Shown one piece after another: positions 36,315 to 36,420 of a stretch of 64,000 nt of DNA. Position numbers and translations under genes: made by a program. The notes beneath the pieces were generated by a model. That model was given only the letters and a program-made list of their open reading frames with translations, did not search any database and was not told where the DNA came from. This DNA is from a filamentous cyanobacterium ESFC-1 (GTDB taxonomy: Bacteria > Cyanobacteriota > Cyanobacteriia > Cyanobacteriales > Spirulinaceae). Position 1 is the stretch's first letter; each line of letters opens with the position of its first letter. Location: the NCBI GenBank assembly GCA_000380225.1, contig KB904821.1, positions 4,309,987 to 4,373,986 of the forward strand. The letters are read 5' to 3'.

Positions 36315-36320
36315 TTTCTG

Positions 36321-36420
36321 TTATTGGTTGTTGGTTATTTGTTATTTGTTGTTGGTTGTTGGTTGTTGGGCGGGGAAACCCCGCCCCTACAAGCCGATTG
36401 CCGATTGCCGATTGCCGATT
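36321..36420 (-). repeat. Heptamer array and GC-rich hairpin before the carotenoid oxygenase gene
   Basis: On the minus strand this reads GGCAATCGGCAATCGGCTTG, the hairpin GGGGCGGGGTTTCCCCGCCC (36387-36368), then AACCAACAACCAACAAC and related units down to 36321. Order and orientation relative to the gene equal those upstream of recG (23465-23696), so the composite unit exists twice. Confidence 0.85.

What the first reader, a model, noticed from the sequence alone, without database searches (positions are those of the whole stretch)
36315..36420. A composite repeat (GC hairpin plus AACCAAY array) forms the leader of two unrelated genes, and a bare array that of a third
The block GGCAATCGGCTTG, hairpin GGGGCGGGGTTTCCCCGCCC, then AACCAAC/AACCAAT heptamers ends one to six bases before the ATG of recG (23465-23696) and of the carotenoid oxygenase (36315-36420). 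A heptamer array alone ends at thrB (4247-4330). In all three the A/C-rich form is on the mRNA strand and no Shine-Dalgarno sequence is seen. A/C-rich unstructured leaders can promote ribosome entry, and heptamer units (not a multiple of three) can change length by slippage without altering the protein. A mobile 5'-leader cassette that tunes translation is possible.
Basis: partly seen in the sequence, partly recalled or inferred. Interest (0 to 1): 0.72.

Follow-up and report, generated by a model that had tools for sequence, protein, structure and literature searches.

The report
Cyanobacterial heptamer repeats abutting gene edges
The three repeat "leaders" are real, but they belong to a family of 7-base repeats that fills hundreds of gaps between genes in this cyanobacterium and runs up to gene ends and gene starts alike; upstream of a start only the orientation that does not disturb translation is found, so they look like tolerated filler rather than a purpose-built translation switch.

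Summary
The three arrays exist as described and are far beyond chance: 209 runs of three or more AACCAAY units in 540 kb of intergenic DNA, against 1-3 in Markov simulations. Over 2.86 Mb of the host genome I found 185 arrays, none inside retained gene calls. They form the 3' arm of a fixed-order mosaic: TCAGTTA, CTAAGGGGC, GGCARTC, GC hairpin, then AACCAAY. The A/C strand's 3' end lies within 15 nt of a START in 37/105 cases and of a STOP in 35/80, so placement is not start-specific. Between codirectional genes the A/C strand is sense 85:38. This excess reflects a depletion of the reverse orientation, not an enrichment at starts. The filter is simple: flipped arrays would put in-frame TTG/GTG starts without stops before 43/46 array-led genes and fold the leader; the sense form has almost none and no structure. 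Different heptamers before recG in other cyanobacteria obey the same rule. Lack of a Shine-Dalgarno is normal here. The leader observation is right; the start-targeted translation-tuning cassette is not supported. Best filed as a new member of the cyanobacterial heptamer-repeat (STRR) class with embedded small hairpins.

The parts
23387..23452 (+). Left-arm heptamers of the recG mosaic: GGCAGTC (23387-23416) and TCAGTTA (23426-23452)
   Evidence: same order genome-wide
23465..23477 (+). GGCAATCGGCTTG block (GGCAATC family)
23480..23499 (+). GC hairpin H1, GGGGCGGGGTTTCCCCGCCC; not followed by a T run, so not terminator-like
   Evidence: 127 H1 copies in 2.86 Mb
23503..23677 (+). AACCAAY array (25 units), 3' arm, sense to recG
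23678..23699 (+). Degenerate tail of CCAATGA/CGAATGA units that supplies the recG start codon (23697)
   Evidence: the ATGAC start is enriched at array-led genes, 19/46 against 310/2275
36320..36369 (-). Degenerate AACCAAY array, sense to the carotenoid oxygenase gene (34821-36314, -)
36368..36387 (-). GC hairpin H1
36393..36423 (-). GGCAATC heptamers (GCCGATT on + strand), left arm of the mosaic
4078..4209 (+). 44-bp x 3 repeat built from GTCATTG heptamers, G/T-rich, starting at the stop codon of the upstream gene
4251..4327 (+). AACCAAY array (about 11 units) ending 4 nt before the thrB ATG (4332)
14420..14446 (+). Short AACCAAC-type array, antisense to both flanking - strand genes
18900..18933 (+). 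Short AACCAAY-type array, antisense to both flanking - strand genes

Best explanation
The arrays are the C-rich arm of a dispersed, polar mosaic of heptanucleotide repeats with small GC hairpins, of the class called STRR in cyanobacteria. The mosaic has spread through, and grown within, non-coding DNA of this lineage until it meets coding sequence. It therefore ends at the outermost codon of a gene, start or stop alike, and edge units become that codon (AACAA-ATG-AC, or AACTAA read as TAG on the other strand). Upstream of a start only orientations that do not disturb translation survive. AACCAAY on the mRNA strand has no G, so it holds no ATG/GTG/TTG and no Shine-Dalgarno-like site, its T-units carry stops, and it does not fold. 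The reverse (GTTGGTT/ATTGGTT) is an open frame full of TTG starts. Shown: dispersal, order, edge abutment at both gene ends, orientation bias, codon enrichment, predicted effect of flipping. Inferred: growth by slippage or recombination, and selection as the filter.
For: Intergenic only, 185 arrays in 2.86 Mb; 209 runs observed against about 2 simulated. Fixed order: AACCAAY follows the other tokens 52:2, 49:0, 48:0, 46:0, 37:0, 44:0. Start and stop abutment equal, 37/105 and 35/80, Fisher p=0.29. TCAGTTA, at the other end of the mosaic, also abuts both (19/46 starts, 23/65 stops). Orientation 85:38, explained by depletion of the reverse form. Flipping test: 1/46 against 43/46 genes with an in-frame upstream start; MFE -0.27 against -6.9 kcal/mol. 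Families that carry stops when read toward a start abut starts in 73/201, stop-less ones in 2/62. ATGAC starts 19/46 against 310/2275 (p=5e-6); TAG stops 22/41 against 26% (p=2e-4). Lineage-specific amplification: 2749 hits against 0-57 in 12 family genomes. In other cyanobacteria, arrays of many different units before recG are C-rich sense when near the start (14 of 22 within 30 nt), and G-rich only 37 nt or more away (0 of 9 within 30 nt, p=0.001).
Against: The polarity of the mosaic alone would put the A/C end outward, so part of the orientation pattern needs no selection. Stop-less families are also scarcer at stops (16/99), so the codon filter is not the whole story. Tight abutment (0-5 nt) is more frequent than I would expect from random insertion followed by growth; a target preference at stop/start codons is not excluded. 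Gene calls are my own. Assembly N-gaps and duplicated segments ending in arrays show that array lengths may be unreliable.
Confidence: 0.74

Rival explanations
1. Functional 5' leader: the A/C-rich single-stranded array is a standby or S1-type ribosome entry site that was selected before the start codon, and its length tunes translation.
For: Sense bias 85:38; unstructured leaders; recG spacers of other cyanobacteria carry heptamers more often than other codirectional spacers in the same loci (33/59 against 22/134), with C-rich units near the start; TAACTGA repeats in Beggiatoaceae sit mostly toward starts (PMC4679880).
Against: Equal abutment to stops; no enrichment at starts relative to convergent spacers; k-mer-masked repeats are depleted before starts generally; absence of Shine-Dalgarno is normal. 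The recG loci share ancestry and a conserved upstream gene in 70 of 78.
Confidence: 0.14
2. Target-site-specific mobile cassette: the composite transposes or recombines into sequences resembling stop/start codon contexts (CTAA, AAATGAC), which are concentrated at gene edges.
For: Recurrent junctions AA[CTAA] at stops and AACAA[ATGAC] at starts; enrichment of TAG and ATGAC; fixed order of parts; hairpins H1 and H2 occur next to and inside arrays.
Against: No sharing of C/T unit barcodes between loci above a Markov expectation, hence no sign of recently copied whole arrays; no paralogous empty sites found; no matches on plasmids or viral contigs. The near-identical segment pairs end at assembly gaps.
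Confidence: 0.1
3. Recombination or chromosome-organising sequence: the arrays act at DNA level and their position beside genes is incidental.
For: Exclusion from coding DNA and preference for convergent over divergent spacers.
Against: No strand pattern along the chromosome in 200-kb bins; the orientation rule at starts is codon-related.
Confidence: 0.02

Closest known systems
Cyanobacterial heptanucleotide STRR (short tandemly repeated repetitive) sequences
   Same: 7-bp tandem units, dispersed, intergenic, several families per genome, mixed with hairpins; function unknown, transcript stability or translation coupling proposed (PMC2670836).
   Different: AACCAAY unit, very high copy number and a fixed-order mosaic; identity with published STRR unit sequences could not be checked in a held paper.
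TAACTGA direct repeats of Beggiatoaceae and cyanobacteria (MacGregor 2015, PMC4679880)
   Same: Heptamer arrays within a few bases of start codons, open reverse frame and stop-containing forward frame; the other end of the present mosaic is the same heptamer (TCAGTTA = TAACTGA on the other strand).
   Different: In the Guaymas genome 147 of 170 sets point to starts and 12 to stops; here start and stop abutment are equal, closer to that paper's Microcystis sample.
SDR small dispersed repeats of Nostoc (Elhai et al. 2008; paper not held, cited in PMC4390886)
   Same: From memory: 21-27 nt elements with a shared hairpin, often embedded in heptamer arrays; H1 is such a hairpin.
   Different: Sequence identity with SDR families and mobility not tested.
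Leader simple-sequence repeats with phase variation (e.g. uspA2 AGAT repeats, cited in PMC4679880)
   Same: Tandem units between promoter and start codon.
   Different: No length variation or expression change shown here; the three window genes are housekeeping or metabolic genes, not surface proteins.

Membership tests
Cyanobacterial heptanucleotide STRR | Tandem 7-bp units, dispersed in many copies | tested here: met
   185 AACCAAY arrays plus other heptamer families in 2.86 Mb
Cyanobacterial heptanucleotide STRR | Non-coding location | tested here: met
   0 of 185 arrays inside retained gene calls
Cyanobacterial heptanucleotide STRR | Cyanobacterial host | tested here: met
   recG relatives are all cyanobacterial
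Cyanobacterial heptanucleotide STRR | Unit identical to a published STRR unit | not testable with these tools
   Original papers not held; searches did not show AACCAAY described
TAACTGA-type start-directed repeats (Beggiatoaceae) | Most arrays forward and just upstream of start codons, not stops | tested here: not met
   37/105 starts against 35/80 stops within 15 nt
SDR small mobile hairpins | Short hairpin dispersed inside or next to heptamer arrays | tested here: met
   H1 127 copies in 2.86 Mb; same strand and 5' of AACCAAY 52:2
SDR small mobile hairpins | Recent mobility (filled and empty sites) | tested here: inconclusive
   No paralogous empty site within the 2.86 Mb held; no same-genus genome
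Length-variable leader repeat (phase variation) | Copy number varies between strains with an effect on expression | not testable with these tools
   No close strain and no expression data

The most novel reading that the evidence does not exclude
A G-free heptamer leader immediately before the start codon is a genuine, sequence-independent translation element of cyanobacteria, maintained at certain genes such as recG although the unit itself is replaced from lineage to lineage; its copy number would link repeat instability to RecG level.
Probability: 0.1. Interest if true: 0.72.

Novelty: new member of a known kind. Interest (0 to 1): 0.4.

Why it matters
It gives a simple, testable rule for how tandem heptamers coexist with translation: they run up to both ends of genes, but before a start codon they occur almost only in the orientation free of start codons and structure. 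It also shows repeats supplying start and stop codons, which affects annotation of protein ends. A real leader function at recG across cyanobacteria would be a new kind of sequence-free leader, and the data here make that directly testable.

Tried and rejected
Replication-strand explanation for orientation: no pattern by 200-kb bins. Hairpin as intrinsic terminator: not followed by a T run in either orientation. Whole-array copying between loci: C/T barcodes are shared less than a second-order Markov expectation. Empty sites by paralogy: none. Array length divergence between duplicated segments (1376030-1377258 and about 1732.5 kb): first looked like a natural experiment, but these copies end at runs of N, so a scaffolding artefact is likely. 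Plasmid and viral copies: none. Rfam: none. recG as unique hotspot: weakened when the conserved gene order and short spacer were seen, though it stays above other codirectional spacers.

Full report
1. Observation. At recG the parts are GGCAATCGGCTTG 23465-23477, hairpin 23480-23499, array 23503-23677, then a degenerate tail whose last ATG (23697) is the recG start. At the carotenoid oxygenase (- strand) the array is degenerate (36320-36369), with the hairpin at 36368-36387. At thrB the array is 4251-4327 with ATG 4332. Pfam supports the three gene identities. The window also holds two AACCAAY-type arrays (14420-14446, 18900-18933) antisense to their flanking genes, which the finding did not mention.

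2. Genome-wide placement. The window lies in a 5.63-Mb cyanobacterial genome that holds 2359 overlapping matches to four consecutive units. I took 2.8 Mb of its chromosome plus the window, called genes with a codon-pair model (2321 retained; genes made largely of repeat removed), and mapped 185 arrays of three or more perfect units. None lie inside retained genes. A fifth-order Markov model trained on the same intergenic DNA gives 1-3 runs against 209 observed.

3. A polar mosaic. In the A/C orientation the parts follow one order: TCAGTTA, CTAAGGGGC, GGCAGTR/GGCARTC, hairpin TAGGGGCGGGGTTTCCCCGYCC, AACCAAY, sometimes a second hairpin, then the gene edge. AACCAAY lies 3' of the hairpin in 52 of 54 same-strand pairs, and 3' of the other tokens tested in all same-strand pairs (37-49 each), except the second hairpin and TGACCAA.

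4. Start versus stop. The 3' end of the A/C strand is within 15 nt of a start in 37 of 105 arrays that face a start, and within 15 nt of a stop in 35 of 80 that face a stop (Fisher p=0.29). The opposite end of the mosaic, TCAGTTA, also touches starts (19/46) and stops (23/65). High-copy 12-mers are commoner next to stops than next to starts, and rarest between divergent genes. The placement is therefore a gene-edge rule, not a start rule.

5. Orientation. Between codirectional genes the A/C strand is sense 85 times and antisense 38 times (p=3e-5). Per spacer and orientation: convergent 0.055, codirectional-sense 0.063, codirectional-antisense 0.028, divergent 0.024. Sense does not differ from convergent (p=0.5); antisense does (p=0.003). 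So the bias is a depletion of the reverse form upstream of starts. The reason is visible in the sequence. For 46 genes with an array within 20 nt of the start, 1 has an in-frame upstream start without a stop in the 60 nt before it, while 43 would have one if those 60 nt were flipped; predicted folding of -30..+15 is -0.27 kcal/mol as found, -6.9 when flipped and -3.7 for other genes. Heptamer families with stops on the strand read toward a start abut starts (73/201); stop-less ones do not (2/62). Only 21% of other ATG genes have a Shine-Dalgarno-like motif, so its absence here means little.

6. Repeat-derived codons. Array-led genes begin ATGAC in 19 of 46 cases (others 310 of 2275), and array-abutted genes end in TAG in 22 of 41 (others 26%). 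The junctions AACAA[ATGAC] and AA[CTAA] recur. The repeat edge is thus used as start or stop codon, recG in the window being one example.

7. Other lineages. Twelve genomes of the same family carry 0-57 hits against 2749 here, which points to amplification in this lineage; no same-genus genome is held. Upstream of recG in other cyanobacteria I found heptamers of more than twenty distinct units. Those with C>G on the mRNA strand lie a median 20 nt from the start (14 of 22 within 30 nt); those with G>C a median 69 nt (0 of 9 within 30 nt, p=0.001). Heptamers occur in 33/59 recG spacers and 22/134 other codirectional spacers in the same loci, but the upstream gene is conserved in 70 of 78 and the species are related, so I do not treat recG as proven special. 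The upstream gene in the window is a histidine kinase that does not match the start of the one usual in relatives.

8. Mechanism and filing. The best reading is a known class, cyanobacterial heptamer repeats with small hairpins, expanded in this genome into a fixed-order mosaic that fills non-coding DNA up to coding sequence and is filtered at starts by translation. The resemblance to TAACTGA repeats (PMC4679880) is close in form, and that paper already names coding potential as a probable control on distribution; the start preference reported for the Guaymas genome is not met here. Mobility and length variation remain untested. Caution on lengths: the assembly contains 24 runs of N in 2.8 Mb, and near-identical segment pairs that carry arrays end at such gaps; the window itself has no N.

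Noticed in passing
L031-L110, spacers upstream of recG: Many cyanobacteria carry heptamer arrays of different unit sequence directly before recG, C-rich on the mRNA strand when close to the start; 33/59 recG spacers against 22/134 other codirectional spacers.
   Followed up: partly
window 23673-23699; also L045, L085, L086, L100: AATGACC-type arrays contain ATGA every 7 nt: an ATG reads M-T-N-D-Q-stop and the stop TGA overlaps the ATG two units on, a possible termination-reinitiation ladder leading to the real start.
   Followed up: no
window 4078-4209: A perfect 44-bp repeat in three copies, made of GTCATTG-like heptamers, starts at the stop codon of the gene before thrB.
   Followed up: no
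host chromosome 1376030-1377258 and about 1732.5-1733.7 kb; 938-941 kb; 2387-2391 and 2411 kb: Near-identical segments carrying heptamer arrays end at runs of N; these look like scaffolding artefacts caused by the repeats.
   Followed up: partly
host genome, 18 copies in 2 Mb (e.g. 940.9 kb, 1222.1 kb, 1934.3 kb): A second hairpin, TGGTGCGACCCCGCG...CGCACCA, sits inside AACCAAY arrays.
   Followed up: no
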